Notes under the pieces: generated by a model | Told to the model about the DNA's origin: nothing | Database searches by the model: none | Seen by the model: only the letters and a program-made list of their open reading frames with translations | Source of the DNA: Oxalicibacterium flavum | GTDB lineage: Bacteria > Pseudomonadota > Gammaproteobacteria > Burkholderiales > Burkholderiaceae_D | DNA: 64,000 nt | Direction of reading: 5' to 3' | NCBI RefSeq assembly: GCF_014635065.1 | Contig: NZ_BMCG01000005.1 | Location: 248,001-312,000, forward strand | Shown here: positions 19,523-44,336 of the stretch, one piece after another | How the letters are laid out: each line of letters opens with the position of its first letter | Position numbering within the stretch: position 1 is the stretch's first letter | Translations under genes and position numbers: made by a program

Positions 19523-20536
19523 ATGACAATCAACGATTACCGCAATTTCGGACGCACCGGCGTCAAGGTCTCGCCGCTCACGCTGGGCTGCATGATGTTC
19601 GGCAACAAGACGGAACTGGACGAATCCATCCGCATCATCGACCGTGCCATCGATGCCGGCATCAATTTCATCGACACTGCCAACGTCTATGCACGCGGCC
19701 GCAGCGAGGAATTCACCGGCGAGGCCCTCAAGCGCAACGGCAAGCGGCACGACATCTTCCTCGCGTCCAAGGTGCATCTGCCAATGCACGACAGCGATCC
19801 CAACCTGCGCGGCAGTTCGCGACGCCACATCATCCAGCAGGTCGAAAACAGCCTGCGCCGGCTGCAGACCGATTACCTCGATCTGTACCAGATCCATCGC
19901 CCGGAGCCGGGCACCGCGATCGACGAAACCCTGCGCGCGCTCGACGACCTGGTGCGCTCGGGCAAGGTGCGCTACATCGGTTCGACCACCTTCGCCGGCT
20001 GGCAGGTGGTGGAAGCGCTGTGGGCCAGCAAGGAGCTGGGGCTGAACCGCTTCGTCTCCGAACAGCCGCCCTACAACCTGCTGGACCGTCGTATCGAACG
20101 CGAACTGCTGCCGGTGGCGCAGACCTACGGGCTGGCGGTGATTCCGTGGAGCCCGATCGGCGGCGGCATCCTGTCCGGCAAATATCGCAAGGGCCAGCCG
20201 CTGCCGCCGGATTCGCGCTACACCAATCCGAATCCGATGCAGGCCAGGCGTTTCGTCGCCACCGTGTTCGACGTGATCGAGCCGCTGGCCGAACTGGCAG
20301 CCGAGAAGAACGTGCCGTTGTCGCAACTGGCGCTGGCATGGACCGCTTCGCGTCCCGGCATCACGAGCGCGATCACGGGGCCGCGCACACTGGCGCAACT
20401 GGAAGATGCGCTGGCCGCCATCGATCTGGTGTTGACCGACGAGGACGTGAAGCGCATCGACCAGATCATTGCACCCGGCACGCACGTGGCGCCGTTCTAC
20501 GAAGCCAACTTCGGTGCCAGCCAGTACCGCTGGTGA
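19523..20536 (+). CDS. Aldo/keto reductase, island copy 1
   Basis: This is a cytosolic NADPH-dependent oxidoreductase of the aldo/keto reductase superfamily, 337 residues. The TIM-barrel core shows the active-site Asp and Tyr in FIDTANVYARGRSEE, the Lys in FLASKVHLP, and the His in YLDLYQIHRPEPGT. The C-terminal cofactor region reads PGITSAITGPRTLAQLEDAL. It opens the plus-strand gene run leading to the flavin monooxygenase. Reduction of an aldehyde or ketone released by oxidative desulfurisation is a sensible but unproven role. No strong ribosome binding site precedes the ATG. It is clearly related to the second copy at 22.3 kb. Confidence 0.9.
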   Translation: MTINDYRNFGRTGVKVSPLTLGCMMFGNKTELDESIRIIDRAIDAGINFIDTANVYARGRSEEFTGEALKRNGKRHDIFLASKVHLPMHDSDPNLRGSSRRHIIQQVENSLRRLQTDYLDLYQIHRPEPGTAIDETLRALDDLVRSGKVRYIGSTTFAGWQVVEALWASKELGLNRFVSEQPPYNLLDRRIERELLPVAQTYGLAVIPWSPIGGGILSGKYRKGQPLPPDSRYTNPNPMQARRFVATVFDVIEPLAELAAEKNVPLSQLALAWTASRPGITSAITGPRTLAQLEDALAAIDLVLTDEDVKRIDQIIAPGTHVAPFYEANFGASQYRW

Positions 20537-20841
20537 TTGCCTAAGCACAGGGCGAGCTAAGCATTCCACGGTGGCGCATATGAAGATTGGTCCACCGTGG
20601 AATATGAAAATGAAATTTGCTTGGTTCTTTCTTTGAACCGCCATTGCTATCTTGTCCGATTCGGACAAGTCGCGACGGAAGGATTGTCGCGATCTCCCCG
20701 CAGTTGCAGTCATCCAGCATTCAGAAGCCGGTTTCCGTCCCGACCCATTGCGCCGTATCGGCAATGCCTCGGGCGAATCCGCTATTGCCGCGCCGCTTGT
20801 ATCTGTGTCCCATCGTTTGTCGCCAAAAGAGAAAAAAGGGA
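20537..20841. promoter_or_regulatory. Intergenic region with two strong inverted repeats upstream of the first monooxygenase
   Basis: This 305-base gap between the first aldo/keto reductase and the DszA-like gene is notably structured. A 12-bp perfect inverted repeat (ATTCCACGGTGG ... CCACCGTGGAAT) lies at 20563-20603 with a 17-base loop and no T-run. A 19-base palindrome, CTTGTCCGATTCGGACAAG, lies at 20651-20669. Directly after it a TCGCGAC/GTCGCGA pair occupies 20670-20692. The first could be a processing or weak termination hairpin. The palindrome has the form of a dimeric-repressor operator. No good small gene was found. Confidence 0.55.
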
Positions 20842-22218: not shown

Positions 22219-22335
22219 ACCAGGCGCGCGTTTGGCATGTCGTAACGAAGATGCGGCATGCAAGGTGAATGCGCCGCTTGTCATTCGGACATTTCGCGGT
22301 CGGGTCGGCGGAAGCGATCAGAAAAGGATAAAGGA

Positions 22336-23361: not shown

Positions 23362-23404
23362 TCGCGGGGACGGAACATCAATAACATTTGGAACTGGACA
23401 AGAC

Positions 23405-25372
23405 ATGAGTATTTCTTCCACTGCCGCGACGGGTGAGCCCGAAGACGCGGCCGCCACCGATTCCGCAGTCAAACCGGATCGGACGAAAAGAACCAAGGTG
23501 CTGCCACACCACTCGGAGCACATCGACGTGCAGGCCATGCCCGAAGTGCTGGGCCGTCTGACACGGCTGGCGATCCGCTATCCGTGGCATTGCACGTTCG
23601 CGATCATGGCGGCGCTGGGTGCCGCCGTGTTCAACCTGCTGATGCCGCTGCTGCTCGGCAATGCGGTCGATCAGGCCGGCCATCTGGTGGCCGAGGCGCA
23701 GGGCGATTTCAGTGCCGTCAAGGTGTCGCTGCTTGTCAGCGGCGCATTGATCGTCGGTGTGTGCGCGGTACGCGGCATCATGACGGGATTGCAGGGCTAC
23801 CTGGGAGAGACGCTGGCGCAGAAGGTCGGCTATGACCTGCGCATGGCCTTCTTCGAAAAACTGCAGCGCCTGAGCTTCAGCTACCACGACAAGATTCACA
23901 CCGGCGACCTGATCGCGCGCGGCATGCTTGATCTCGAAGGTGTACGCGCTTTTCTGGAGTTCGGCGTGCTGCGTGTCATTACGCTGACCCTGCTGCTCGG
24001 TGTCGGCTCGTGGCGCCTGCTCAGCATCGACGTCACGCTGGGCCTGCTGGCCCTGAGCTTCGTGCCGTTTGTGGCATGGAATGCCGTGACCACGGGACTC
24101 AAGCTGCGCGTGAGCTGGCAGCGTCTGCAGAAGATGATGGCGGAGCTGACGCTGAACATGGAAGAGAACCTGCAGGGTGTGCGCGTGGTGCGTGCCTTTA
24201 CCACCGGCGCATTCGAGATGGCCAAGTTCGATCGCATTTCGGACGCTGCATTGCGGCTGTCCAATCATCGCATCACGCAGCGCATGAGTTCGCTGAGCGC
24301 GATGACGCTCGCCTATTACATTTCCATGGCGCTGGTGCTGTGGGTGGGCGGTCAGCAGATCGCAGCCGGCACGCTGACGGTGGGGTTGCTGACGGAGTTC
24401 CTGACCTTCATCACCATTCTCCAGCAACCGCTGCGCCAGGTGGGCATGATCATCAATGCCAGTGCGCGCGCAACCGGGTCCGGCGCTCGTCTGTTCGACG
24501 TGCTGGATTCCGTGCCGGATATTCAGGATGCGCCCGAGGCGAAACCGCTGGTCGTCACGCAAGGATTGCTGCGGTTCGACTCGGTTGGCTTTTCGTATGC
24601 AAAAGGCGAGGCCGCCAAGAAAGTGCTGTCCGACGTCAGCTTCACGGTACGCAAGGGCGAGGTGCTCGGCATCGTCGGTCCGCCGGGCAGCGGCAAATCC
24701 ACGATCGCGCATCTGATCCCGCGCTTCTACGATCCGGCTGCCGGCAGCATCTCCATCGATGGCCAGGACCTGCGCACCCTGCAACTGGCATCGCTGCGCA
24801 AGGCGGTGCGGCTGGTGCAGCAGGAGAACTTCCTGTTCGATACCTCGGTGCACAACAACGTCGCCTATGCCGAACCGCAGGCCGAGGAAGAGCGCGTGAT
24901 CGAGGCGGCCGACACCGCGCAGATCCACGAGCATGTGGCACAACTGCCGCAGGGCTACACCACGCGCGTCGGCGAACGAGGCGTGGCGCTGTCGGGCGGC
25001 CAGCGCCAGCGCATGACGATCGCGCGCGCCCTGCTTGACAATCCGGCGCTGCTGATCCTCGACGATTCCACCGCCGCCATCGATCCGGCCACCGAGCAGC
25101 GCGTGCGCGCCGCACTGAAGGAAACGCTGAAGAACACCGCCACCATCATCATCGCGCATCGCCTGAGCTCGCTGCGCCACGCCGATCACATCATCGTGCT
25201 CGATGAAGGCCGCATCGTCGAACGTGGCACGCACGACGAACTGGTCGCAGCAGATGGCCATTACGCGGAGTTGTGGGCGCTGCAGAATCGCGGAGAACAG
25301 CCGCACGCACCAGCTCACCAGGAAACCACTTCTGCCAAGGACGGCACACACCAAGCGGAGTTGACATTTTGA
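23405..25372 (+). CDS. ABC exporter half-transporter, degenerate-site subunit
   Basis: A 655-residue half-transporter: six membrane helices in about residues 55-340, then a nucleotide-binding domain. Walker A is GPPGSGKST (near residue 425) and the signature is a canonical LSGGQRQR (near 528). The Walker B, however, reads LLILDDSTAAID, with Asp where the catalytic Glu belongs. That is the pattern of the degenerate-site subunit of heterodimeric exporters such as TM287/288 and BmrCD. The partner is the next gene. The start MSISST is chosen over an in-frame ATG 23 codons upstream. The exported substrate is unknown; it could be a toxic intermediate or an unrelated drug. Confidence 0.9.
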   Translation: MSISSTAATGEPEDAAATDSAVKPDRTKRTKVLPHHSEHIDVQAMPEVLGRLTRLAIRYPWHCTFAIMAALGAAVFNLLMPLLLGNAVDQAGHLVAEAQGDFSAVKVSLLVSGALIVGVCAVRGIMTGLQGYLGETLAQKVGYDLRMAFFEKLQRLSFSYHDKIHTGDLIARGMLDLEGVRAFLEFGVLRVITLTLLLGVGSWRLLSIDVTLGLLALSFVPFVAWNAVTTGLKLRVSWQRLQKMMAELTLNMEENLQGVRVVRAFTTGAFEMAKFDRISDAALRLSNHRITQRMSSLSAMTLAYYISMALVLWVGGQQIAAGTLTVGLLTEFLTFITILQQPLRQVGMIINASARATGSGARLFDVLDSVPDIQDAPEAKPLVVTQGLLRFDSVGFSYAKGEAAKKVLSDVSFTVRKGEVLGIVGPPGSGKSTIAHLIPRFYDPAAGSISIDGQDLRTLQLASLRKAVRLVQQENFLFDTSVHNNVAYAEPQAEEERVIEAADTAQIHEHVAQLPQGYTTRVGERGVALSGGQRQRMTIARALLDNPALLILDDSTAAIDPATEQRVRAALKETLKNTATIIIAHRLSSLRHADHIIVLDEGRIVERGTHDELVAADGHYAELWALQNRGEQPHAPAHQETTSAKDGTHQAELTF

Positions 25373-27210
25373 GCAGCAAGCAAGCACAGCCGAAAGGCCA
25401 GCCAGCCGCCATCGAGCGCGGCGAGGAAATTTTTGCGCGATACGACAGCCGTGTCATGTCGCGCCTGTGGAAGTACATCAGTCCGCACAAGGGCGCACTG
25501 GCGGCGACGGTCCTGACCGTGGCGGTGTTCACGCTGGCGCAGGTATCGATCCCGGTCACGGTGCGGTACGCGGTTGACAGCGCGGTTGGCAATGCCACCT
25601 ATCCGTTCAATGCGGTGCTGGCGGTATTCGTGGCGCTGATCGTGCTGAACGCGGTGTCCAATTTCTTCCAGGAATGGGTGGCGGCGCGCCTGGCGCAGCG
25701 CGTGATCTTCGATCTGCGGCGCGCCATGTTCAACCATCTGCAGCAGGTCTCGCTGTCCATCCTTGATCGGACTCAGGTTGGGCGGCTCATGTCGCGCCTG
25801 CAGGGCGACGTGAACTCGCTGCAGGAATTCATGGAAACCTCGGTCTCGGCCGTCGGCGATTTCTTCCTGCTGCTGGGCATCATCGGCGTGCTGCTGACGA
25901 TGGATACCAAGCTCGGCCTGCTGACGCTGGCGGTGTTGCCGCTGCTGTTCGTCATCCGGCGCGTCTGGCTGCCGTGGGCGCGCAAGGCGTTCACGCGTGC
26001 ACGCGAGGCATCGTCCAGCGTCAATGCGGCACTGGCGGAGAACATCAACGGCATCCGCACGGTCCAGGAAAACCGCCGCGAGGCAGTCAACCTCGAACGC
26101 TACGACGTGCGCGCCACCGAGAACCTGCAGGCACAGATCGGTTCCTCGCGCGCCTCACAGGTCATGATGCCGACCGTGGATACGCTGACCGGGATCGCGA
26201 TGGCGATCGTGGTCGTGGTCGGCGGCTCTTCCGTCGTCTCCGGCGAGCTCGACGTCGGCGTCATGGTCGCCTTCATCTTTTGCGTGCAGCGCTTCTTCGA
26301 TCCGATCCGCACGCTGACCATGCAATATACGGTCATGCAGCGCGCGATGGCTTCGGGCAATCGCATCTTCGAGGTGCTCGACATTCCGGTTGACCTGAGC
26401 GACAAGCCGGATGCCGTGCAATTGCAGGACGTGCCGCCCTCGGTGGATTTCAACCGCGTCACCTTCGGCTACCGGCCGGGGCAGCCCGTGCTGCACGAGC
26501 TAGATCTGCACATCGCGCCGTATCAGACCGTGGCGCTGGTCGGTCCCACCGGATCGGGCAAGACCAGCATCGCCGCGCTCATCCATCGTTTCTACGATGT
26601 GTGGGAGGGCGAAGTGAAAGTCGGCGGGCAGGACGTGCGCGACCTTACGCTGGATTCGCTGGGCCGCTGCGTCGGCATGGTGCTGCAGGAGCCGTTCCTG
26701 TTCAGCGGCACGGTGATCGACAATCTGCGTTACGGGATTCCCGACGCCAGCATGGAAGACGTGATCGAAGCAGCCAAGGCCGTGCGCGCACACGACTTCA
26801 TCGTGCGTCTTCCCGACGGCTACGACACCGTGCTCGGCCAGCGCGGTCGCAACCTGTCGATCGGCCAGCGCCAGTTGTTGAGCTTCGCACGCGCGCTGCT
26901 TGCCAAGCCGAAGATTCTGATCCTCGACGAGGCGACCGCCAACATCGACAGCTTCACCGAACTGGAGATCCAGCGCGCGCTCAACGTGCTGCGCAAGGGA
27001 CGCACCACGATCATCATCGCCCACCGTTTGGCGACCATTCGCGACGCAGACGTCATCGTCGTGCTGCAGAAGGGCCGCATCCTCGAGAAGGGAACACACG
27101 AACAGCTGCTGGAAAACGATGGGCTGTATGCCAAGCTGCATGCTAGCAGCAACGAGTCGTTCGACGACGTGGTGGCGGAAGACGAGGCGGAGCACGTTCC
27201 GCATACCTGA
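25369..27210 (+). CDS. ABC exporter half-transporter, catalytic-site subunit
   Basis: The 613-residue partner of the preceding exporter. It begins at a TTG overlapping the upstream stop by four bases (TTGA), with GGAG eight bases before; no better start exists. Six membrane helices lie in about residues 35-310. The nucleotide-binding domain has Walker A GPTGSGKTS (near 392) and a full catalytic Walker B LILDEATANID, but a non-canonical signature LSIGQRQL. Paired with the Asp Walker B of the other subunit, this leaves one working and one degenerate ATP site. That complementary asymmetry strongly supports an obligate heterodimer. Confidence 0.91.
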   Translation: MSSKQAQPKGQPAAIERGEEIFARYDSRVMSRLWKYISPHKGALAATVLTVAVFTLAQVSIPVTVRYAVDSAVGNATYPFNAVLAVFVALIVLNAVSNFFQEWVAARLAQRVIFDLRRAMFNHLQQVSLSILDRTQVGRLMSRLQGDVNSLQEFMETSVSAVGDFFLLLGIIGVLLTMDTKLGLLTLAVLPLLFVIRRVWLPWARKAFTRAREASSSVNAALAENINGIRTVQENRREAVNLERYDVRATENLQAQIGSSRASQVMMPTVDTLTGIAMAIVVVVGGSSVVSGELDVGVMVAFIFCVQRFFDPIRTLTMQYTVMQRAMASGNRIFEVLDIPVDLSDKPDAVQLQDVPPSVDFNRVTFGYRPGQPVLHELDLHIAPYQTVALVGPTGSGKTSIAALIHRFYDVWEGEVKVGGQDVRDLTLDSLGRCVGMVLQEPFLFSGTVIDNLRYGIPDASMEDVIEAAKAVRAHDFIVRLPDGYDTVLGQRGRNLSIGQRQLLSFARALLAKPKILILDEATANIDSFTELEIQRALNVLRKGRTTIIIAHRLATIRDADVIVVLQKGRILEKGTHEQLLENDGLYAKLHASSNESFDDVVAEDEAEHVPHT

Positions 27211-27233: not shown

Positions 27234-27965
27234 ATGACGCAGAACATCTACGATGACGCCAGTTTCTTCGAGGCCTACAGCGGACTCGAACGGTCTTTGA
27301 AAGGGCTGGACGGCGCGCCGGAGTGGCCGGCCCTGCGGGCGAGGATTCAAGATCTGCGCGGTGCGCGTGTACTCGATCTCGGTTGCGGTTTCGGCTGGTT
27401 CTGCCGCTGGGCTGCGGAGCAGGGTGCGGATACGGTGCTCGGCCTGGACGTATCGGAAAACATGCTGACCCGCGCCCGCGCCAGTACAACGGACAGGCGT
27501 ATCGCATACCGCCATGCCGATCTCGAGCATGTACGTCTGGGCAGAAGCGGCTTCGATCTCGTCTACAGTTCCCTGGTCCTGCATTACCTGGAAAACTTGC
27601 CGCGGCTGTTCGGGGAAATCCATGGAGCGCTGGAGGAGGGGGGCGATTTTCTGTTTTCCGTCGAGCATCCGCTGGTGACGGCACCGGATCGTCAGGGATG
27701 GGAGGAGCGACATGGCGGGCCGGTCTGGCCGGTCAACGATTATCTGCAGGAAGGAGCGCGCACGACGGATTGGCTTGCGCCGGGTGTCGTCAAACAGCAC
27801 CGCACGATTGCCGGTTACCTGAATCCCTTGCTTGCCGCCGGCTTTGCGCTCGTGCACCTGGATGAATGGGGGCCGGATACGCAGCAGGTGGCACAGCGGC
27901 CCGAATGGGAAAGGGAGCGGCACAGGCCGCCTTTTCTGCTGGTGCATGCGCGCCGTATCGGCTGA
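27234..27965 (+). CDS. Class I SAM-dependent methyltransferase
   Basis: A 243-residue cytosolic methyltransferase of the UbiE/COQ5-like Methyltransf_11 type. Motif I is VLDLGCGFGWFCRWA near residue 43, followed by the acidic LGLDVSENML and the LVYSSLVLHYLENLPRLFGEI block. It starts 23 bases after the exporter and ends 36 bases from the convergent GNAT gene, closing this plus-strand run. The substrate is not predictable. S- or O-methylation of a small molecule linked to the island is a guess only. Confidence 0.85.
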   Translation: MTQNIYDDASFFEAYSGLERSLKGLDGAPEWPALRARIQDLRGARVLDLGCGFGWFCRWAAEQGADTVLGLDVSENMLTRARASTTDRRIAYRHADLEHVRLGRSGFDLVYSSLVLHYLENLPRLFGEIHGALEEGGDFLFSVEHPLVTAPDRQGWEERHGGPVWPVNDYLQEGARTTDWLAPGVVKQHRTIAGYLNPLLAAGFALVHLDEWGPDTQQVAQRPEWERERHRPPFLLVHARRIG

Positions 27966-28001
27966 ACGGCATCGGCGTCTTCGCGGCCGGTCGAAGGATG
28001 A

Positions 28002-29485: not shown

Positions 29486-30021
29486 GACACCTCTTGTATT
29501 GATTCAATGCAATGTGAAAACGATGTCCCGTTCGGCGCAGGGGTTTCAACCTGCGGTACTGCTTTGCATCCGAACATGGACTGCGATCCTCTTGCGAGGG
29601 ATGCGGGTAATCATAGAAACGGTTCGATTCCAATGACAACGAATTTGTCTGAATATGCTTATAAAGGAGGCGCTCATAACCTTGCTCAAGAAATGTGCAT
29701 CCGGCAGCGATGCCTTTGCCATATTCGTATTTCGCATGTGCTACTGCGAAATGATTCGTCGCCATCATGGATGGTTGAGCATATAGTCAAGTCGTCTCTT
29801 GAACGTCCTCTGTATTGAAGACCTTGGCCCGCATTTAGATGCGGGCTTTTTTTTGCGTGTCGATTTCTGCAGCGGATTCATCAATGACATATTTCGCTGA
29901 ACGATATTCGACTTTGCGTGCTATGGATCGCATTTTTTATTGTTTGTGACGCGCGTTCGCTGCCTGTAAGTTTCGTCCTCTAATCAGCAATGCGGCAATG
30001 CCGCAGAACAGGAAAAGGGTG
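29486..30021. promoter_or_regulatory. Divergent regulatory region with an orphan terminator
   Basis: This 536-base AT-richer region separates the CysB-type gene from the second monooxygenase. It holds a strong plus-strand terminator (29827-29854) with no obvious gene before it. Upstream of it lie a perfect Shine-Dalgarno-like AAAGGAGG (29663-29670) and two short overlapping frames containing Cys codons: ATG 29633 to 29818, and TTG 29682 to about 29786. ATGCGGG at 29601 could pair with the left arm of the terminator. A leader or attenuator, or a small RNA, fits. The promoter of the monooxygenase operon itself could lie on either side of the terminator. Confidence 0.55.
29827..29854 (+). terminator. 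Orphan rho-independent terminator upstream of the second monooxygenase
   Basis: An 8-bp perfect stem GCCCGCAT/ATGCGGGC with loop TTAG is followed by eight T's. It reads on the plus strand, 168 bases before the monooxygenase start, and no established gene precedes it on that strand. Confidence 0.88.
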
Positions 30022-32297: not shown

Positions 32298-34033
32298 ATG
32301 GTTTTGTGAGCAGCAAGGCGTCTCCGTTGGTGGAAGTGGTCGACCTGAGAGTGCGATTCGGCGAGAGCGGAAAGGAGGTCGTCAAGGGCATCTCCTTCTC
32401 GATCCGACGTGGCGAATGCCTGGCGCTGGTCGGCGAATCCGGTTCCGGCAAGAGCGTGACCGCCAGAACGCTGGTCGGCCTGACGGGACGGCGCAGCCAG
32501 GTGACGGCCGAGCGTCTTCAATTCGACGGTGCCGATCTGCGCTCCTTCCGCGAGGCCGACTGGCGCTCGATTCGTGGCAGTCAAATTGGCTTCGTCATGC
32601 AGGATGCGCTGGGTTCGCTCGATCCTCTGCGTACCGTGGGCGAGGAAGTGGCCGAACCATTGCGCCTGCATACCAAACTCGACAAGAGGCAGCGTGCAGA
32701 GCGCGCGATCGACCTGCTGCGTTCGGTCGGCATGCCGGAACCCGAGACGCGTCTGCACCAGTATCCGCACCAGTTGTCGGGCGGTCTGCGCCAGCGCGCG
32801 CTGATCGCGTCCGCACTGGCCTGCCATCCCGACCTGCTGCTGGCCGACGAGCCGACCACCGCGCTCGATGCCGCCGTTCAGGCGCAGGTGCTCGATCTGC
32901 TGGAATCGCTGCAGACGCCGCAGAGATCGATGCTGCTGGTCAGCCACGATTTTGCGGTGGTCTCGCGCCTGGCGGACCGCGTGGCCGTCATGCATCACGG
33001 CGAGATCGTCGAGCAGGGACCGCTCGAGCAGATTCTGCACGATCCGCAGCATCCTTATACCAAGTCCTTGCTCGGTGCCGTGCTCTCGATCCAGAAGCGC
33101 GACCAGGGCCGGCAGCGCGTGGCGCAGACCGCGGACGGCCACTTTGCCTTGCGGCCGAGCGAGATGACGCCGGCGCTGGCGCGGCAGGCTCCGGTGGTGG
33201 TGGAAGCCAACAATCTCATCAAGAGTTTCGTATTGCCGAACGGCGAGCGCCGCAAGGCGGTGTCCGAGGTGTCCTTTGCGCTGCGCAAGGGCGAGACGCT
33301 CGGCATCGTCGGTGAATCGGGGTCCGGCAAGACCACGCTGATGCGCATGATCCTTGGACTGGAAAAGCCCGATGCCGGCGACGTGCGCCTGAACGACAGG
33401 TTGTGGGCGGGCATGACGCCGGCCGAGCAGCGCGCCGAGCGCAGGCGTATCCAGGTGGTGTTCCAGGACCCGCTGGCCTCCTTCGATCCGCGCTACACGG
33501 TGGCGCGCGTATTGGCAGAACCGCTGGAAATTGCCGGCTACCGCACGGCTGCCGCCGCACGTGCGAGGTCGGCCGAGCTGCTGCAGATGGTGCGGCTCGA
33601 TCCGCAGCTGCTTGACCGCCGCCCGATCGAGCTGTCGGGCGGACAGCGCCAGCGTGTCGCCATCGCGCGTGCGCTGGCGCCGCAGCCGGACATCCTGATC
33701 TGCGACGAGCCGGTATCGGCGCTCGACGTCTCGGTGCAGGCGCAGATCCTCGACCTGCTGGTCGATCTGAAGGACCGGCTTGGCCTGTCCTGCCTCTTCA
33801 TCTCGCACGATCTTGGTGTCATCCATCGCGTCAGCGATCGCATCATGGTCATGAAGGATGGCGTGGTGGTCGAGTCGGGCGGCGTACATGAAGTCTTCGA
33901 TAATCCTCAGCACGTTTATACGCAGGCGTTGCTGAGTGCAGTGCCGCAGTTGGGTGTCAGAAAACGCGTAGCCAATTCAATTGTCGTGGGGAGTGGTCAG
34001 AATGAAGAAGAAGGTGAACGGGATGCTGCCTGA
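32294..34033 (+). CDS. Tandem ABC importer ATPase (DppD-DppF fusion, GsiA-like)
   Basis: A 579-residue cytosolic protein containing two full ABC domains, as in GsiA (glutathione) and YejF. Domain 1 has Walker [11 protein letters not shown] (near residue 46), signature LSGGLRQR and Walker [13 protein letters not shown]. Domain 2 has Walker [11 protein letters not shown] (near 340), signature LSGGQRQR and Walker [13 protein letters not shown]. Both sites look complete. Each domain ends in the oligopeptide-type extension ([11 protein letters not shown] and [11 protein letters not shown]). It powers the DppC- and DppB-like permeases of the island. Its end overlaps the TonB receptor start by 32 bases. 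Confidence 0.93.
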
Positions 34034-36155
34034 GCCCGTGCTGGTGAAGTCGTCGTCGTTGCGATATGCGATGGCATGGAGAACTCTGAGCGTCGGCGCC
34101 GTGCTGTGCCTGGCGAGCGGCGCAGTGGCCGCACAGGACACGGCAACCCAGGTCGAGGAAACCGTGGTCGTCAAGGCCAAGGCGCTGAAGGATGCGGAGC
34201 GTGCCAAGGAGCGTCTCAAGAACGTGACGGGCACCGCCAGCGTGGTCAACAATGCGGAAGTCGAACGCGGCCGCGCCGCCAATGCCGAAGACGTGCTGGC
34301 CTATCAGCCGGGCGTGTTTGCCGCCGCCACCAGCGGCACCGGCGCCAACAAGATCTCGATTCGCGGCTCCGGCCTGAATACCTTCTACCAGGGTTACTCG
34401 CTGGGCATCAAGTATCTGTACGACGGCCTGCCGATCACGGGGCCGGGCGGCACGCAGGAAGACCTGCTGACGCTGGACGGCGTGGACTATACGGAGATTC
34501 TCAACGGCGCCAATGCCTTCGCCTACTCGGCACTGTCGCTGGGCGGTGCAATCAACTTCGTCACGCATACAGGACGTTCGTCGCCCGGCAGCCTCGTCAG
34601 CCTCGAGGCCGGCAGCTACGGTTACCGCAAGTACCAGGTCAGCCACGGCGGCGTTTCCGCCTCGGGCGACACCGACTATTACTTTGCCTATGTGCACAAC
34701 GAGCGCGACGGCTTCCAGCGCGATACGCCGAACTCGGGTGAAAGCTACGTCGTGAACCTCGGGCATCGCTTCAACGACCGCGTCGAGACGCGTTTCGTGA
34801 TCCGCCATCGCGGCGAGGAATTGCAGAACGGCAGCACGCTGACGCTGGCGCAGATCCGCAACGATCCGCGTGCCAACAATGCCGTGTCCGGCCGCCGCAA
34901 GCCAGGCACCACGCTGATCACCAACAAGACCACCTTCACGCTGGATGACAAGTCCAAGCTCGAAGCCGGCTTTGCCTACAACGACTATCCGCTGGATAAC
35001 GGCTGGGTCTATTCGGCGCAGCCGCAGGACTGGCGCTCCAAGGATGCGAGCATTTCGCTGCGCTACTTGCGCACTGGCGACACGCTGTTCGGGAAGCCTA
35101 GCGACACCACCGTCAGCTTCAGCGATACGCGTCTGCTGGACGGTGACGTGACCGCCTACAACCAGGCCAACGGCGTGCGTTCCAACGAGCGCCAATACAC
35201 CAAGTACAGTGGCTCGCGCGATACGGTGCTGGCGGTCGGCAATGAACTGCAGCTGACCGACAAGTATGCGCTGTCGACCGGCCTGTCGCTGATCGAGGTG
35301 GACCGCGCCGTGCGCATCGAGCGCACCATCCTGACCACGACCGAAACTTTCCCGCGCGAGGTACGTTATGTTGATCGTACAGTGGCGCCGCGCGTGGGCC
35401 TGCGTTATCAGGCATCCGACAACCTGCAGGTGTTCGGCAACGTCACGCGTTCGGTCGACCCGCCGGTGACCTGGCAGATGGGCAGCACCGGCGTTCCCTA
35501 TGTGCGTCCGCTGCAGCCGCAAAAGGCCACCACCGCGGAGATCGGACTGCGCGCCAGCAACGACACGCATGAGGGCAGCCTATCTTTCTATCGCTCCAAC
35601 GTCAGCAATGAGCTGTTGACCATCGTGATCCGCCAGGCATCCGGTTCCGATCCGGGACTGACCGCCAATGCCAACGCCAGCAAGACCATCCACCAGGGTA
35701 TCGAAGCGGCACTGGCTTCCAAATTGTGGAAGGGCGCCGATGGCGATCGCCTGACCTATCGCCAGGCTTATACCTTCAACGATTTCTACTACCGCGACGA
35801 TCCAACCTTCGGCAAGAACGAGTTGCCGAGCTTGCCCAAGCATGTCTATCAGGGCGAGTTGCTGTTCCAGCAGGCCGGCGGTTTCTATGCGGGGCTGAAC
35901 GTGCGCGCACTGTCCAGCTACTACGTGGATTACGCCAATACGCTGAAGGCGCCGTCGGCCACGATCTGGGGTGCCAAGTTCGGTTACGAGAGTCCCGACC
36001 GCAAATGGAAAGCCTTCCTCGATTTCCGCAATCTCGGCGACAAGAAATACGCCACCGCTGCCAACACCACCTATAACGCAGGCGGCAACGACTCGGCCAA
36101 CTTCTATCCGGGTGATGGGTTTTCCATCTACAGCGGTGTTGCATTCCGGTTCTAG
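34002..36155 (+). CDS. TonB-dependent outer-membrane receptor, island copy 1
   Basis: A 717-residue gated outer-membrane channel. The signal peptide ends near GAVAAQD; a TonB box (EETVVV) follows, then the plug domain (LAYQPGVFAA, NKISIRGSG, GGAINFVTHTG) and a 22-strand-type barrel ending in the aromatic VAFRF. Its plug and C-terminus resemble the second receptor at 42.2 kb (for example LDFRNLGDKKYATAANTTYNAGG against LDFKNLADRKYVATSSTIYDAAG). The start MKKKVNG is preceded by GGGGAG. Being inside the importer operon, it very probably takes up the same substrate rather than a siderophore. There is no N-terminal signalling extension. Confidence 0.92.
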   Translation: MKKKVNGMLPEPVLVKSSSLRYAMAWRTLSVGAVLCLASGAVAAQDTATQVEETVVVKAKALKDAERAKERLKNVTGTASVVNNAEVERGRAANAEDVLAYQPGVFAAATSGTGANKISIRGSGLNTFYQGYSLGIKYLYDGLPITGPGGTQEDLLTLDGVDYTEILNGANAFAYSALSLGGAINFVTHTGRSSPGSLVSLEAGSYGYRKYQVSHGGVSASGDTDYYFAYVHNERDGFQRDTPNSGESYVVNLGHRFNDRVETRFVIRHRGEELQNGSTLTLAQIRNDPRANNAVSGRRKPGTTLITNKTTFTLDDKSKLEAGFAYNDYPLDNGWVYSAQPQDWRSKDASISLRYLRTGDTLFGKPSDTTVSFSDTRLLDGDVTAYNQANGVRSNERQYTKYSGSRDTVLAVGNELQLTDKYALSTGLSLIEVDRAVRIERTILTTTETFPREVRYVDRTVAPRVGLRYQASDNLQVFGNVTRSVDPPVTWQMGSTGVPYVRPLQPQKATTAEIGLRASNDTHEGSLSFYRSNVSNELLTIVIRQASGSDPGLTANANASKTIHQGIEAALASKLWKGADGDRLTYRQAYTFNDFYYRDDPTFGKNELPSLPKHVYQGELLFQQAGGFYAGLNVRALSSYYVDYANTLKAPSATIWGAKFGYESPDRKWKAFLDFRNLGDKKYATAANTTYNAGGNDSANFYPGDGFSIYSGVAFRF

Positions 36156-36158
36156 GAA

Positions 36159-37904: not shown

Positions 37905-38033
37905 GCGGGGATGCCACAGCGATCAGTGTCCGGGACAACGCCGGCGACGTGAAACACACCTGGCCTGTACATGCCGGGCACGGCTTTGGTGCGTTTGCCG
38001 GTCCCGTTTCGTTTTAAAGAAGAAAAGGTTGTG

Positions 38034-39782
38034 ATGAAAGTATCGACAGGGAGTCTCAAGTCAGACCGCCCGGTATGGCGGGCGGTGTGCGGGGCACTTG
38101 TTGCTGCGGCGCTGGGCCTGGCCGGTTGTTCCTCTGGCGACGCGGACAAGGGCGCGCAGGAAAACGGCCCGCTTGGGACCGGTGTCGTCAAGGATGGCCA
38201 CCTCGGCTATTCGCCCGGCGATTACTGGCAGAAGGAAGAAGGCCGTCCCGGCGGTACGCTGCGCGCGACGGTGGCATTGGACACCAATACCTTCGACGTG
38301 CATGCCATCTCGCACGGCAACGTGCAGTGGCTGGGGCGCATCCTCTATGACGGCCTGGTCTATCAGGACGAGCAGGGCAACATTTCGCCGTGGCTGGCGA
38401 AGTCCTGGGAGGTATCGGCGGACGGCAAGGTCTATACCTTCCACCTGCGCGACGACGTGAGCTTCAGCGACGGCACGCCGTTCAACGCGGAAGCGGTGCG
38501 CGTCAACCTCGAGCACATGCGCGATCCGGCCACCAAGTCGCCGCTGGCTGCTGCCTACATCAAGCCCTACAAGAGCGGGCGCATCGTGGACGAGTATACG
38601 TTCGAGGCCACGTTGAGCGAGCCGTATTCGCCATTCCTCGACGTGCTGGCGCAGTCGTGGCTGGGCATGATTTCGCCGAAACAGATTCGCGAGAATCCGA
38701 GGTCCATCGCCGAGCGGCCGATCGGTTCCGGCCCCTTCGTGCTGGAGAGTTACACGCGCAGCCAGGGTGCCAACTTCGTCAAGCGCAAGGATTACAACTG
38801 GGCACCGCCGGTGACGCGTCACAAGGGGCCGGCCTACCTGGATCGCATCGAACTGCGCTTCGTGCCGGAAGCGGTGATCCGCTACTCGTCGCTGCAAAGC
38901 GGACAGTCGGATTTCACGCTCGATGCGCCGCCGCAGAACGCCAGGGCGATCCGCGCCGATCCCGGCCTGCGCTTTTCGAGCCGCGTGCGCAAGGGCAATC
39001 CGACCCGCAGCGTGACCTTCAATGTCGAGCGTGCGCCGTTCGACGATGTCCGGGTACGCAGAGCACTGGCGCTGGGGATCGATCGTGACGGCATTGCCTG
39101 GCTCAACGGCTTTGGCGAATATCTGCCCAAGACGGATTACCTGGCGGCCAATACCCGCTATTACGATCCATCGTTTGCGGATGCGCTGGCCTACAACGCG
39201 CCGGAGGCCAATCGCTTGCTGGACGAAGCCGGCTGGCCAGAGCGCGATGCCGAGGGCTTCCGGCTCAAGGACGGCAAGCGGCTGGCGGCTTCATTGCTGA
39301 TCAGCGACAGCTCCGCCGCGTCGAGCAGCGTGGCGGTGGCGATGCAATCGGATCTGCGCAAGCTCGGATTCGACCTTGCGATCGAAGTCGTGCCGACCGC
39401 CATCGCCACCGACAGGCGATATGCGGGCGACTATCAGGCGCTGGGCGGCGGCTACTGGCATACCAATACGCCGGATGGCCTCTACATCCTCTATCACAGC
39501 CACTCGATTACGACGCCGAAGTTGATCGGGCAGAACAGTTCGCGCCTGCGCGATGCCGAACTCGACGATGTGCTGGAACGCGCGCGTCACTCCACCGATC
39601 CGGCCGAGCTGCAGCGACTCTACAGCCAGGCACAGCGCCGGCTGACGGAACTGGTGCCGGCCGTTCCCTCCTATGAAAGCCATCACATGATTGCCTACCG
39701 CAGCAATGTACGCGGCGTGTTCTTCGATACCTCTCACAACACGCCGTCCTTCCTCGGCATCTGGCTGGAGGACAGCAAATGA
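38034..39782 (+). CDS. ABC importer substrate-binding lipoprotein (family 5), copy 2
   Basis: A 582-residue paralogue of the preceding lipoprotein, with its own signal and lipobox (LGLAGCSSG). Shared blocks include LDTNTFDVHAISHGNVQWLGR, LEHMRDPATKSPLAAAYIKPY, DVLAQSWLGMISPKQIREN, and YQALGGGYWHTNTPDGLYILYHS. The start MKVSTG is chosen because the signal peptide begins there; the in-frame upstream extension lacks a signal. Its stop overlaps the DppB-like permease start by four bases (ATGA). Two receptors for one translocator suggest two related ligands. Confidence 0.92.
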   Translation: MKVSTGSLKSDRPVWRAVCGALVAAALGLAGCSSGDADKGAQENGPLGTGVVKDGHLGYSPGDYWQKEEGRPGGTLRATVALDTNTFDVHAISHGNVQWLGRILYDGLVYQDEQGNISPWLAKSWEVSADGKVYTFHLRDDVSFSDGTPFNAEAVRVNLEHMRDPATKSPLAAAYIKPYKSGRIVDEYTFEATLSEPYSPFLDVLAQSWLGMISPKQIRENPRSIAERPIGSGPFVLESYTRSQGANFVKRKDYNWAPPVTRHKGPAYLDRIELRFVPEAVIRYSSLQSGQSDFTLDAPPQNARAIRADPGLRFSSRVRKGNPTRSVTFNVERAPFDDVRVRRALALGIDRDGIAWLNGFGEYLPKTDYLAANTRYYDPSFADALAYNAPEANRLLDEAGWPERDAEGFRLKDGKRLAASLLISDSSAASSSVAVAMQSDLRKLGFDLAIEVVPTAIATDRRYAGDYQALGGGYWHTNTPDGLYILYHSHSITTPKLIGQNSSRLRDAELDDVLERARHSTDPAELQRLYSQAQRRLTELVPAVPSYESHHMIAYRSNVRGVFFDTSHNTPSFLGIWLEDSK

Positions 39783-40714
39783 CCTATCACCTCAAGAAAA
39801 TCCTGCTGCGCCTGCTGGCCGGCATCGGTGTGCTGTGGGGCGCGGCGACGCTGACCTTTGCCGCCATCAACCTGACCGGCGGCGATACCGCGCTGGCGAT
39901 TCTCGGCGGCCCGGAGGCAATGCCGACGCCGGAAGTGATGGCGCAGGTACGCAAGGAATACGGGCTCGACGATCCGCTGCCGGTGCAGTACGCCAACTAT
40001 CTGCTGAAACTAGCGAAGGGCGATCTGGGCGAGTCCTATCAGTTGCGCATTCCGGTGGCGGACGCCATTACGCAGCAGTTGTCGGCCACCATCCAGTTAG
40101 CGCTGTGCGCCGGCGTGCTGGCGGTCAGTCTGTCCGTGCTGCTGGCGATCCTGACGGCCGGACGCGCGCAATGGATACGCTCGCTGACTTCCGGCCTGGA
40201 ACTGACGATCACCTCGGCGCCTTCGTTCGTGGTCGGGCTGTTGCTGCTGCTGGTGTTTTCATTCCATTTCCACTGGCTGCCGGCCGCCGGTTCGCAGGGA
40301 TGGAAAGCGCTGGTGCTGCCGACGCTGTCGCTCGCGCTGCCGATTGTCGGCGTGTTGACGCAAGTGCTGCGGCAGGAACTGGAAGACATCCTTGAGCAGC
40401 CCTTCATCGTGATGGCGCGCGCACGCGGCATGTCGGAAGCCGGCGTGCGGCTGCGTCATGCGCTCAAGCACGCAATGGTGCCGCTGGCCACGCTGTCGGG
40501 CTTCATCTTCGCCAGCCTGCTGGGCGGCGCGGTAGTGGTCGAGATGCTGTTCGCGCGGCAGGGCGTGGGCCGGCTGATGCTCGATGCCGCCAACACCAAG
40601 GACATTCCCATCGTGCTCGGCATCACGCTGCTGGCCGCCCTGATCTATGTGGTCGTCAACCTGCTGGTCGATCTGCTCAACGCACTCATCGATCCGCGTC
40701 GCGTGGCCTGGTAA
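39779..40714 (+). CDS. Peptide/nickel-type ABC importer permease, DppB/GsiC-like
   Basis: A 311-residue inner-membrane permease of the DppB/OppB/GsiC family with six predicted helices. The first is at residues 8-33; conserved segments are KEYGLDDPLPVQYANYLLKLAKGDLGES and the coupling loop ARARGMSEAGVRLRHALKHAM, and the C-terminus DLLNALIDPRR is typical. It is translationally coupled to the second binding protein. Together with the DppC-like permease and the tandem ATPase upstream it completes one ABC importer whose genes are unusually separated by a TonB receptor. Confidence 0.93.
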   Translation: MTYHLKKILLRLLAGIGVLWGAATLTFAAINLTGGDTALAILGGPEAMPTPEVMAQVRKEYGLDDPLPVQYANYLLKLAKGDLGESYQLRIPVADAITQQLSATIQLALCAGVLAVSLSVLLAILTAGRAQWIRSLTSGLELTITSAPSFVVGLLLLLVFSFHFHWLPAAGSQGWKALVLPTLSLALPIVGVLTQVLRQELEDILEQPFIVMARARGMSEAGVRLRHALKHAMVPLATLSGFIFASLLGGAVVVEMLFARQGVGRLMLDAANTKDIPIVLGITLLAALIYVVVNLLVDLLNALIDPRRVAW

Positions 40715-40762
40715 GCAATTTCATCCCCTTTGCGGGGCAACCCAAAGCAGAAGAGTAATCCC

Positions 40763-42165: not shown

Positions 42166-42173
42166 AAAGAAAA

Positions 42174-44336
42174 ATGATGCACTCATTATTTGAACGAAAT
42201 CAGCGCAATCAAAACCGTTCTTATCACTACACGCCCATCGCTCGTGCCGTCGGCCTGTCCATGTTGCTGGCTGCGGCGTGCGCAAACGCCGAGGATGCCG
42301 GCGGCGGAGCCGAGACTGACGCAGCACTGGAAGTCGTTGACACGGTGGTCGTGTCCGGCAGCCGCAGCAAGGCGGCCAAGAGCCGGGTCAAGGACGTTCC
42401 TGGCAACATCAGTGTGATTACCAGCGATGAATTGGAGCGCGGGCGCAAGTCCACGCTCGGCGACGTGCTGGCCTACCAGCCGGGCGTGTTTGCGGAATCG
42501 GTCGGCGGCAACGACGCGATCAAGATATCGATCCGCGGCTCGGGCATCATCAGTGGCGTGGGCGTATTCCGCGAGGGCATCAAGTTCCTGTTCGACGGCA
42601 TGCCGATCAGCGGCCCCGGTGGCACGAGCTACGAGTTTCTCAACGCTCAGGGCACGGCGTACACCGAAGTCCTGCGCGGCGGCAATGCCTTCAGCTATGG
42701 TGCGTTGGCGATTGGCGGCGCCGTCAATTTCGTCACCCATACCGGCTATACCGCGCCTGGTACACGCGTGCGTTTCGAAGCTGGCAGTTGGGGCCTGCAG
42801 AAGACCACCATCAGCCACGGCGGCGTGAGCGGCGACTGGGACTACTACTTCAACCTCGACAACTACGAAAGCGATGGCTACCGCGAGCGCTGGAGCCGCT
42901 CCGAGAGCAAGGGCCTGGTCGCCAACGTCGGCTACCGCTTCAGTCCCAAGCTGAGTGCGCGTGCGCTGCTGCGCTATCGCGAGGAGTACCACCAGGACCC
43001 AGGCTACCTGACGTTGACCCAGCTGTATCAGGACCCGCGCCAGCCTGCGGCGGCCAACATCAATGCGTCCAGCGGCACGCGTCCCGGCAGTTACTGGGGC
43101 GGTTTCAAGATCAGCTACATCTTCGACGATGATGCGACACTCGAGGTCGGCCTGAACACGTACAAGTATCCTCACATCAACAGCCGCGAGACCAGGACCG
43201 GTCAGCCGGGCTACTGGCGCTGGATCGACAACAGCCAGTCGATCCGCTATTCCCGCACCGACCAGTGGGCCGGCCATGAAAGCCGGACCGAGGTCTCCTA
43301 CAACGGCACGGAAGAGAATGTCGGTCAGGCGAGAGCGGTGCAGGGCAGCGACAACAGCATCGTGGTCTCCAAGCGGACCTTCAAGAAATCGCACGACCGT
43401 TCGCTGGCAGTCGGCAACGACTTCGCGATCACGCCGGACCTCTGGCTGACCAGCGGCCTGGCATTTACCAGCCTGCGGCGCACTACCGAATATAGCTACC
43501 ATGCGACCAATGCCAATCCGCCAAGCGCGGACTATCAGAGCTACAACTGGGTACCCCGCCTCGGACTGCGCTATTCGGTGACGCCGGATGTGCAGGTATT
43601 CGGCAACATCACGCGCCAGATCGACCCGCCGCTGAACTGGCGCTACAGCATTGTCAACAGGACCAACACCCTGCTCGACCTGAAGGAGCAGAAGGCCAAT
43701 ACCTTCGAAATCGGGGTCCGGGGCCAGGTCGGCATCGCCAGCGGCAGCCTGGTGCTGTTCCGCACGAACGTCAAGCGCGACCTGCTGACCGTGGTGGACG
43801 AGGAAGAAACCGCCCTGCAAGGCGGCGTCATCCAGACCCGCACCTTCAACTCGGAGTCGCCGACGCGGCGCCAGGGCGTGGAACTGGCACTGGACCTGCG
43901 CCTGTGGAGCGGGGATGACGGCAGCCAGGTCGTATGGCGCAACTCCTACACCTGGAACGACTTCCGCTTCGTCCGCGATCCGCGCCTGGGCAACAACCGA
44001 CTGCCCGGTCTGCCTAGCCAGGTTTACGACGGCAAGGTGCAGTACGACCATCCCTCCGGTTTCTACGGCAACCTGAACGTACGGGCCAGAACCCACGTGC
44101 CGATCGATTACACCAATTCGGCCCACGCCCCCGGTTACGCGGTATGGGGAGCGACCTTCGGCTACGAAGCACCTGACCGGAGCTGGAACGCCTACCTCGA
44201 CTTCAAGAACCTGGCCGACCGCAAGTACGTCGCCACGTCGAGCACGATCTACGACGCTGCAGGCAACCGCGATCGGCAGAACTACGCCCCAGGCGATGGT
44301 TTCGGCATGTTCGCTGGTGTCGAGTACAGGTTCTGA
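42174..44336 (+). CDS. TonB-dependent outer-membrane receptor, island copy 2
   Basis: A 720-residue receptor, paralogue of the one at 34.0 kb. The signal peptide ends near ACANAED; the TonB box is DTVVV; plug motifs are LAYQPGVFAESV, IKISIRGSGI and GGAVNFVTHTG; the barrel closes with GVEYRF. Between the plug and last strands the two receptors diverge in loop regions, as expected for different ligands. A doubled ATG (42174/42177) makes the exact start uncertain. It is the last gene of the second island operon, followed by a strong terminator at 44396. No iron-type signalling domain is present. Confidence 0.93.
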   Translation: MMHSLFERNQRNQNRSYHYTPIARAVGLSMLLAAACANAEDAGGGAETDAALEVVDTVVVSGSRSKAAKSRVKDVPGNISVITSDELERGRKSTLGDVLAYQPGVFAESVGGNDAIKISIRGSGIISGVGVFREGIKFLFDGMPISGPGGTSYEFLNAQGTAYTEVLRGGNAFSYGALAIGGAVNFVTHTGYTAPGTRVRFEAGSWGLQKTTISHGGVSGDWDYYFNLDNYESDGYRERWSRSESKGLVANVGYRFSPKLSARALLRYREEYHQDPGYLTLTQLYQDPRQPAAANINASSGTRPGSYWGGFKISYIFDDDATLEVGLNTYKYPHINSRETRTGQPGYWRWIDNSQSIRYSRTDQWAGHESRTEVSYNGTEENVGQARAVQGSDNSIVVSKRTFKKSHDRSLAVGNDFAITPDLWLTSGLAFTSLRRTTEYSYHATNANPPSADYQSYNWVPRLGLRYSVTPDVQVFGNITRQIDPPLNWRYSIVNRTNTLLDLKEQKANTFEIGVRGQVGIASGSLVLFRTNVKRDLLTVVDEEETALQGGVIQTRTFNSESPTRRQGVELALDLRLWSGDDGSQVVWRNSYTWNDFRFVRDPRLGNNRLPGLPSQVYDGKVQYDHPSGFYGNLNVRARTHVPIDYTNSAHAPGYAVWGATFGYEAPDRSWNAYLDFKNLADRKYVATSSTIYDAAGNRDRQNYAPGDGFGMFAGVEYRF

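What the first reader, a model, noticed from the sequence alone, without database searches (positions are those of the whole stretch)
19523..44336. A 25-kb organosulfur acquisition island combining outer-membrane uptake, ABC import and oxidative desulfurisation
Seen: two DszA/NtaA-type flavin monooxygenases, an SfnB/DszC-type oxidoreductase, two aldo/keto reductases, a full peptide-type ABC importer, two TonB-dependent receptors, a heterodimeric exporter and a CysB-type regulator. Known: DszA/DszC and SfnB act on organosulfur compounds, CysB controls sulfur-starvation genes, GsiA-like tandem ATPases import glutathione, and TonB receptors for sulfate esters exist in pseudomonads. Inferred: the genes form one pathway for a bulky sulfur source too large for porins. 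This exact combination is not one I recognise.
Basis: partly seen in the sequence, partly recalled or inferred. Interest (0 to 1): 0.78.

Follow-up and report, generated by a model that had tools for sequence, protein, structure and literature searches.

The report
Mobile organosulfur scavenging island with TonB
A 28-kb block of bacterial genes looks like a complete kit for pulling an unusual sulfur-containing compound through both membranes and stripping out its sulfur, apparently inherited as one unit together with a power supply for the outer-membrane gate.

Summary
The unit is larger than reported: in two congeners the dps to tRNA-Met gap is 0.1-0.3 kb, but here it holds 28.4 kb (about 16,075-44,450), which also carries tonB, an ExbB/TolQ-family gene, two exbD and a free methionine-R-sulfoxide reductase. 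Three other congeners carry the same block at another chromosomal site. A sulfur role is well supported by context. The island's CysB-family regulator is a third paralog; in 4 of 4 congeners with an ortholog a rhodanese and a YeeE/YedE-family transporter lie in the same cluster. Of 12 Burkholderiales loci of the SfnB-like gene, 11 have an NtaA/DmoA-type monooxygenase, 10 a further SfnB-like gene and 9 MetN/MetQ-like genes nearby; one has none. Labels need correcting: LLM1 is nearest LadA/DmoA, LLM2 nearest YtnJ, not DszA; the importer misses the GsiABCD cut-offs. Most likely mechanism: TonB-driven uptake and Opp-type import of a thioether, sulfoxide or S-substituted amino acid or peptide, then flavin-dependent C-S cleavage, with aldo/keto reductases removing the aldehyde. 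Substrate, its size and the exporter's role are not shown. New variant of a known kind.

The parts
16407..17051 (+). tonB (energy transducer); start codon chosen by eye
   Evidence: TonB_C PF03544 46 bits; at the head of the cluster in G002, G005, G011
17119..17982 (+). exbB (ExbB/TolQ family proton channel; ExbB rather than TolQ is read from its place beside tonB)
   Evidence: MotA_ExbB PF01618 111 bits; TolQ model 164 bits (cut-off 221), ExbB model 115 bits (cut-off 206.2), neither met; 80-82% orthologs only in the same 4 of 13 genus genomes, other copies at most 54%
17984..18415 (+). exbD copy 1 (ExbD/TolR family)
   Evidence: PF02472 106 bits
18457..18888 (+). exbD copy 2 (ExbD/TolR family)
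   Evidence: PF02472 88 bits
18913..19389 (+). GAF-domain free methionine-R-sulfoxide reductase (fRMsr)
   Evidence: 169 bits to PDB 3MMH, methionine-R-sulfoxide reductase, with three cysteines aligned; a match in 4 of 13 genus genomes, the same four with the island; no NCBIfam model at E 1e-20
19523..20536 (+). aldo/keto reductase 1
   Evidence: PF00248 266 bits
20842..22218 (+). LLM1, NtaA/DmoA-family FMN monooxygenase, closest to LadA/DmoA
   Evidence: TIGR03860 514 bits; PDB 3b9n alkane monooxygenase 476 bits, 6ak1 DmoA 438 bits, 5tlc DszA 239 bits
22258..23361 (+). aldo/keto reductase 2
   Evidence: PF00248 242 bits
23405..25372 (+). ABC exporter half-transporter A (start approximate)
   Evidence: ABC_membrane and ABC_tran; closest solved chains are ABCB1/ABCB19-type exporters
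25360..27210 (+). ABC exporter half-transporter B (start approximate)
   Evidence: ABC_membrane and ABC_tran; 37% identical to half A
27234..27965 (+). SAM-dependent methyltransferase (no match in the three congener islands)
   Evidence: Methyltransf_11 78 bits
28002..28574 (-). GNAT N-acetyltransferase (RimL-like), overlaps the end of cysB; no match in the three congener islands
   Evidence: Acetyltransf_3 94 bits
28571..29485 (-). CysB-family LysR regulator, one of three paralogs in the genome
   Evidence: PRK12684 405.8 bits, cut-off 402; 85-86% orthologs in G002, G005, G011 and G001
29486..29997 (.). divergent promoter region with blocks conserved across congeners
   Evidence: alignment of G000, G002, G005, G011 and, for the cysB side, G001
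29998..31374 (+). LLM2, NtaA/DmoA-family FMN monooxygenase, closest to YtnJ
   Evidence: TIGR03860 514.6 bits; PDB YtnJ 344 bits, NTA monooxygenase 313, DszA 298, EDTA monooxygenase 275
31392..32297 (+). Opp-type permease C
   Evidence: BPD_transp_1; Opp2C 242 bits, cut-off 300; 75-77% orthologs only in the same 4 of 13 genomes, others at most 40%
32294..34033 (+). fused double ATPase of the Opp-type importer
   Evidence: two ABC_tran and two oligo_HPY stretches
34002..36155 (+). TonB-dependent receptor 1
   Evidence: barrel 125 bits and Plug 55 bits
36159..37904 (+). family-5 solute-binding lipoprotein 1
   Evidence: SBP_bac_5 272 bits; lipobox-like LTGC read from the sequence
37971..39782 (+). 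family-5 solute-binding lipoprotein 2
   Evidence: SBP_bac_5 284 bits; 62% identical to copy 1
39779..40714 (+). Opp-type permease B
   Evidence: BPD_transp_1 110 bits
40730..42064 (+). SfnB/DszC-like flavin oxidoreductase (ATG at 40763 also possible as start)
   Evidence: TIGR04022 265.8 bits, below 430.9 cut-off; PDB DszC-type 119 bits, methanesulfinate monooxygenase 108 bits
42174..44336 (+). TonB-dependent receptor 2
   Evidence: barrel 106 bits and Plug 67 bits; 42% identical to receptor 1

Best explanation
This is an organosulfur-scavenging island that has moved between chromosomal sites or lineages (or been lost repeatedly). Under sulfur limitation the island's own CysB-family regulator switches on the divergent operon llm2-oppC-oppDF-tbdr1-sbp1-sbp2-oppB-sfnB-tbdr2. 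The two TonB receptors, powered by the island's TonB-ExbB-ExbD-ExbD, bring the sulfur compound into the periplasm. The two lipoprotein binding proteins hand it to the Opp-type importer. Inside, the SfnB/DszC-like flavoenzyme and the two FMN monooxygenases oxidise the sulfur and cut the C-S bond (DmoA-like and CmoJ-like chemistry), releasing reduced sulfur or sulfite plus an aldehyde, which the two aldo/keto reductases reduce. The fRMsr recovers methionine sulfoxide. The exporter pair may expel the desulfurised remainder or a toxic intermediate. Shown here: gene families, unity of the block, its sulfur-type neighbourhood and the regulator's family. Inferred: induction by sulfur limitation, that this TonB set serves these receptors, the order of steps, the substrate class (thioether, sulfoxide or sulfone, possibly an S-substituted cysteine or methionine or a small peptide) and the exporter's role.
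For: Unit: dps to tRNA-Met is about 0.34 kb in G006 and 0.10 kb in G008 but 28.4 kb here; the block from tonB to sfnB is syntenic at another site (UspA/TerC to glycerol kinase) in G002, G005 and G011. Co-occurrence: close orthologs of sfnB (81-83%), fRMsr, exbB and oppC lie in exactly the same 4 of 13 genus genomes, own genome included. Operon: nine genes llm2 to tbdr2 on one strand with gaps from -53 to 109 bases for the starts used. Sulfur context: the cysB ortholog of G001 lies with a nitrate/taurine/sulfonate-type ABC transporter, a DsbA-like protein, a rhodanese and a YeeE/YedE transporter (Sulf_transp 208 bits); in G002, G005 and G011 rhodanese and YeeE follow cysB inside the island. Of the 12 order-level loci of the sfnB ortholog outside the family, 11 have an NtaA/DmoA-type gene, 10 a further SfnB-like gene (30% identity or more) and 9 MetN- or MetQ-like genes within about 15 kb; in 11 control stretches the counts were 1, 0 and 1. 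Of 5 named plasmid loci opened through sfnB or sbp2 hits, 5 contain SsuD, SfnB, MetNIQ or MsuE as annotated. MAG L005 has an SfnB over its cut-off (479 of 430.9 bits) and MetN- and MetQ-like genes beside orthologs of sfnB, LLM2 and the importer. Chemistry precedent: CmoJ cuts alkylcysteine sulfoxides to a sulfenic acid and an aldehyde, and DmoA is listed among C-S-cleaving flavoenzymes (PMC10863075, part 1 of 3).
Against: No expression data and no substrate. One of 12 order-level loci (G382, 42% identity) has none of the sulfur neighbours. The SfnB-like protein is below the SfnB cut-off. The window's own copy lacks the rhodanese-YeeE pair, which sits on another contig (C6), and lacks the second SfnB-like gene of the congeners. 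The G001 ABC proteins and rhodanese miss their equivalog cut-offs, and the best NCBIfam model for the G002 YeeE protein is a selenium-linked YedE/FdhT, far below its cut-off (110 of 350 bits). ExbB scores nearer the TolQ than the ExbB model, meeting neither. No flavin reductase was recognised in the island; four PF01613 proteins lie elsewhere in the genome. Linkage to TonB-ExbBD is shown only inside the genus; in G030 and Pseudoduganella lurida the best ExbB (59%) is on another contig or over 1 Mb away. In MAG L005 an exbD fragment (67%) abuts akr1 at the contig end, but the best ExbB of that genome is only 38% identical. PMC13352529 (passage) describes DmoA as oxidising DMS to DMSO rather than cutting a C-S bond.
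Confidence: 0.74

Rival explanations
1. The island takes up and oxidises a metal chelate or aminopolycarboxylate (EDTA/NTA-like or opine-like metallophore): TonB receptor plus Opp/Nik-type importer plus NtaA-family monooxygenase, used for nitrogen, carbon or metals.
For: LLM2 scores 313 bits to NTA monooxygenase and 275 to EDTA monooxygenase; the binding proteins resemble NikA and CntA. That EDTA degraders pair an NtaA-type enzyme with an Opp-type importer is recalled.
Against: LLM1 is nearest LadA/DmoA; the SfnB/DszC-like gene, CysB paralog, rhodanese/YeeE, MetNQ-like and SsuD neighbours point to sulfur.
Confidence: 0.1
2. Two modules travel together: a sulfur module (cysB, llm2, importer, receptors, sfnB) and an unrelated module (tonB-exbBD, fRMsr, aldo/keto reductases, ABC exporter, methyltransferase) for detoxification or another nutrient.
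For: The halves lie on either side of the cysB-llm2 divergent promoter; outside the genus they are found apart or partial (G030, L007).
Against: Both halves occur together at two chromosomal sites; the left half carries LLM1 and, in congeners, a second SfnB-like gene; in Pseudoduganella lurida the exporter pair lies on the same 21-kb stretch as cysB, a receptor and sfnB, with about 3 kb of other genes between.
Confidence: 0.12
3. An iron/siderophore uptake and processing locus.
For: TonB receptors with weak siderophore-receptor similarity (receptor 2, TIGR01783 128 bits, cut-off 223.5) and exporter-type ABC proteins; dps next door.
Against: No Fur-box-like match (0 at up to 3 mismatches in 64 kb, also 0 expected by chance; an E. 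coli consensus, so weak evidence); CysB-family regulator and sulfur-type enzymes; dps is outside the insertion and present at the empty sites.
Confidence: 0.04

Closest known systems
ats-sft sulfate-ester cluster of Pseudomonas (atsACBR-sftR-atsK-sftP)
   Same: TonB-dependent receptor, ABC importer, LysR-type regulator and sulfur-releasing enzymes in one cluster (PMC3596284, passages)
   Different: Sulfonate-type ABC importer and sulfatases there; here an Opp-type importer, FMN monooxygenases, an SfnB-like enzyme, TonB-ExbBD genes and no recognised sulfatase
CmoJ and YxeK S-substituted cysteine salvage of Bacillus subtilis
   Same: LLM2 is closest to YtnJ among solved structures (that YtnJ is CmoJ is recalled); oxidative C-S cleavage; a GNAT gene is present
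   Different: The known pathways acetylate, cleave and deacetylate (PMC10863075, part 1 of 3; PMC9706529, passages); no deacetylase was recognised in the island and the GNAT is RimL-like and untested
DMS/DMSO2 and alkanesulfonate pathways (DmoA, SfnG/SfnB, MsuC/MsuD, SsuD)
   Same: LLM1 closest to LadA and DmoA; SfnB-like enzyme; SsuD, MsuE and SfnB are neighbours of orthologs elsewhere
   Different: Known substrates are small (recalled); here TonB receptors, an Opp-type importer and TonB-ExbBD are joined to the enzymes
SfnB-LLM-MetNIQ sulfur clusters of Burkholderiales and Rhizobiales
   Same: Same enzyme families around the sfnB ortholog
   Different: Mostly MetNIQ or sulfonate-type importers; Rhizobium gallicum has an Opp-type set beside them, Komagataeibacter a TonB receptor

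Membership tests
NtaA/DmoA family FMN monooxygenases (TIGR03860) | score above 279.7 bits | tested here: met
   514.4 and 514.6 bits
CysB family regulators (PRK12684) | score above 402 bits | tested here: met
   405.8 bits, only just
CysB or Cbl proper (PRK12681, PRK12679) | equivalog cut-offs 436 and 491 | tested here: not met
   354.8 and 365.6 bits; one of three paralogs
SfnB (TIGR04022) | equivalog cut-off 430.9 bits | tested here: not met
   265.8 bits; a homolog, not an SfnB by this test
DszABC 4S pathway | DszC cut-off 850 bits; DszA as closest relative | tested here: not met
   DszC 115 bits; LLM1 and LLM2 closer to LadA/DmoA and YtnJ
GsiABCD glutathione importer | equivalog cut-offs of GsiA, GsiB, GsiC, GsiD | tested here: not met
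   488 of 1077; 149 and 153 of 594; 211 of 463; 211 of 484 bits
TonB-ExbB-ExbD energiser | ExbB equivalog cut-off 206.2 bits | tested here: not met
   115 bits; TolQ model 164 of 221 bits. TonB C-terminal domain and two ExbD/TolR domains are present
free methionine-R-sulfoxide reductase | GAF fold with the conserved cysteines | tested here: met
   alignment to 3MMH keeps three cysteines; that they are catalytic is recalled
ats-sft sulfate-ester cluster | arylsulfatase or alkylsulfatase in the cluster | tested here: not met
   no sulfatase match among the island genes scanned
CmoJ/YxeK-type S-alkylcysteine salvage | activity on N-acetyl-S-substituted cysteine or its sulfoxide, with acetylase and deacetylase | not testable with these tools
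   sequence nearest YtnJ; GNAT present, no deacetylase recognised in the island
sulfur-starvation regulon | induction when sulfate is absent | not testable with these tools
   needs expression data

The most novel reading that the evidence does not exclude
A self-contained, transferable outer-membrane-to-cytosol line for one class of large or scarce organosulfur compound (for example thioether or sulfoxide peptides), with a TonB-ExbB-ExbD-ExbD energiser of its own under sulfur control, so that TonB transport has evolved a dedicated sulfur branch comparable to its iron branch.
Probability: 0.28. Interest if true: 0.68.

Novelty: new variant of a known kind. Interest (0 to 1): 0.5.

Why it matters
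Organic sulfur can exceed 95% of total sulfur in aerobic soils (PMC3596284, passage), yet the routes I know of concern mostly small sulfonates, sulfones or sulfate esters (recalled). A conserved block that joins TonB receptors and a TonB energiser to an Opp-type importer and C-S-cleaving flavoenzymes would point to a class of sulfur nutrients not yet identified, and gives a concrete operon and regulator with which to find it.

Tried and rejected
Glutathione import: rejected on Gsi cut-offs. DszABC-type desulfurisation: rejected on scores. Iron control: no Fur-box-like site, weak evidence. tRNA-mediated integration: the island ends next to tRNA-Met, but no integrase was recognised among the genes scanned and no attachment duplication was sought beyond reading the junctions by eye. 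A shared operator across the island's promoters: blocks are conserved upstream of cysB (also in G001), llm2 and llm1, but no single motif was demonstrated. TonB linkage outside the genus: looked for and not found in G030 or Pseudoduganella lurida. A class-wide sample found no ortholog beyond the own genome among 369 genomes at E 1e-90, although a Pseudomonas genome has one at 54%. score at most four candidates per genome, so their counts are lower bounds. The one scan of named genomes used six exact peptide patterns and gave four loci, one of them a distant relative (24%, L008) that was not used.

Rows dropped before counts: G026 (L050) and G059 (L051) were fetched and mapped but not counted, because their best sfnB matches are only 34% and 31% identical. 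G026 does hold an LLM1 homolog (60%), an Opp-type set and two SfnB-like genes; G059 holds three SfnB-like genes. G030 (same family) was left out of the 12 order-level loci. The five plasmid loci were chosen by me, for having annotation, out of 241 records (sfnB query) and 34 records (sbp2 query). Control stretches were picked by me on the same contigs, not drawn at random; one (G315) begins 1 kb from its target stretch; two were 15 kb, the other nine 30 kb.

Literature: listings (20 of 29 shown; 17 of 17; 10 of 96; 12 of 29; 8 of 8; 6 of 6) showed no title or start of abstract describing this combination; only the open library was searched.


Full report
Observation. The window is 64 kb of a 3.2-Mb genome in 9 contigs, 55-67% G+C by 2-kb step. 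LLM1 and LLM2 each score about 514 bits to TIGR03860 (cut-off 279.7). The regulator is CysB family (405.8 bits, cut-off 402) but neither CysB nor Cbl by their own cut-offs. The oxidoreductase is an SfnB/DszC homolog below both cut-offs. The importer is Opp-type and misses all Gsi cut-offs. The two binding proteins are 62% identical and read as lipoproteins.

Boundaries. In congeners G006 and G008 the order miaB, dps, tRNA-Met, miaA, mutL is kept, with about 0.34 and 0.10 kb between dps and tRNA-Met. G012 has about 4.1 kb of other sequence there. In G010 and G002 tRNA-Met, miaA and mutL were found in the stretch fetched but not dps. In the window the same gap is 28.4 kb (16,075 to about 44,450). 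The inserted block therefore begins before tonB, 3 kb left of the reported start. It includes tonB, an ExbB/TolQ-family gene, two exbD and a GAF-domain protein that aligns to a solved free methionine-R-sulfoxide reductase with three cysteines kept. The ExbB protein scores nearer the TolQ model than the ExbB model and meets neither cut-off; I call it ExbB from its place after tonB.

Unit. Congeners G002, G005 and G011 hold tonB-exbB-exbD-exbD-fRMsr-akr1-llm1-(second sfnB-like)-akr2-abcA-abcB-(yeeE, rhodanese)-cysB-llm2-oppC-oppDF-receptors-sbp-oppB-sfnB at a different site, between UspA/TerC and glycerol kinase (G002). Close orthologs of sfnB (81-83%), fRMsr (65-67%), exbB (80-82%) and oppC (75-77%) occur in exactly these three and the window's genome, 4 of 13 in the genus. 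The three are alike in site and sequence and probably close kin, so these are not four independent events. By MiaA the window's genome is closer (81-83%) to three species without the block (G006, G008, G012) than to the three carriers (77-78%), so transfer or repeated loss is likely; no tree was built.

Sulfur context. The island's cysB is one of three CysB-family paralogs at E 1e-60; genomes without the block have two, save G001 with three. In G001, which has the flanks of the congener site but none of the other island genes in the stretch fetched, the 85% ortholog stands with a nitrate/taurine/sulfonate-type ABC transporter, a DsbA-like protein, a rhodanese and a YeeE/YedE transporter. In the three congener islands rhodanese and YeeE follow cysB. 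In the window genome that pair is on another contig and a GNAT gene follows cysB. A sample of 399 genomes of the order gave 14 with an sfnB ortholog at E 1e-90, the own genome and G030 among them. The other 12 loci were all opened. In 11, an NtaA/DmoA-type gene lies within about 15 kb; 10 of these have a further SfnB-like gene and 9 a MetN- or MetQ-like gene (thresholds 30% identity, MetN 40%). The twelfth, G382, has none of them. Eleven control stretches from the same genomes gave 1 with an LLM2-like gene, 0 with SfnB and 1 with MetN (both in G315, 1 kb from its target), and a sigma-54 activator in G285. Five named plasmid loci opened through sfnB or sbp2 carry annotated SsuD, SfnB, MetNIQ or MsuE, 5 of 5, and a sixth opened through LLM2 carries SfnB and a rhodanese-like protein. 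In Rhizobium gallicum an Opp-type set with a 38% binding protein lies beside two SfnB, an LLM enzyme, MetNIQ and MsuE. In Komagataeibacter a TonB receptor lies with the sfnB ortholog, an LLM enzyme, SsuD and a flavin reductase.

Mechanism. Nine genes from llm2 to tbdr2 are packed on one strand, which ties receptors, importer and two flavoenzymes together. The CysB-family gene faces them across 512 bases that hold blocks conserved in congeners. LLM1 is nearest LadA and DmoA, LLM2 nearest YtnJ. CmoJ cuts alkylcysteine sulfoxides to a sulfenic acid and an aldehyde (PMC10863075, part 1 of 3; that CmoJ is YtnJ is recalled), which would give the aldo/keto reductases a job. This step and the roles of exporter and fRMsr are inference. 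A flavin reductase would have to come from elsewhere in the genome (four PF01613 proteins).

Known relatives. The closest architecture in print that I saw is atsACBR-sftR-atsK-sftP (PMC3596284, passages). YxeL/YxeK/YxeP salvage (PMC9706529, passages) and CmoJ are the closest enzymology. A Gordonia study suggests that a TetR-LLM-SfnG-SfnB region serves dibenzothiophene use (PMC9861168, passages). Other papers consulted for passages only: PMC12581299, PMC13352529, PMC12892962.

Verdict. The sulfur reading is well supported by context, the unit is larger and better delimited than reported, several labels were off, and the substrate, its size and the exporter remain open. New variant of a known kind.

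Noticed in passing
L099 (G001 C1 2132000-2151000), 9703-16519: In G001 the site that holds the roughly 31-kb island in G002 carries instead cysB, a nitrate/taurine/sulfonate-type ABC transporter, a DsbA-like protein, a rhodanese and YeeE: two alternative sulfur-type cassettes at one chromosomal site.
   Followed up: partly
L127 (G000 C6 40000-58000), 9134-11224: The window genome keeps a rhodanese-YeeE pair (85% and 75% identical to G001) on another contig than its island cysB, so regulator and pair have been separated.
   Followed up: partly
L040 7876-14604 (G002): Three TonB-dependent receptor genes in a row in the congener island against one at that position in the window, suggesting receptor turnover around a fixed importer.
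   Followed up: no
window 27234-28574: Methyltransferase and GNAT genes lie where the congener islands have YeeE and rhodanese; whether the GNAT acetylates an imported amino acid, as YxeL does, is untested.
   Followed up: no
L133 (Komagataeibacter saccharivorans plasmid), 8965-18733: A compact cassette of sfnB ortholog, LLM enzyme, SsuD, FAD oxidoreductase, MFS transporter, flavin reductase and TonB receptor: a separate link of a TonB receptor to sulfur monooxygenases.
   Followed up: no
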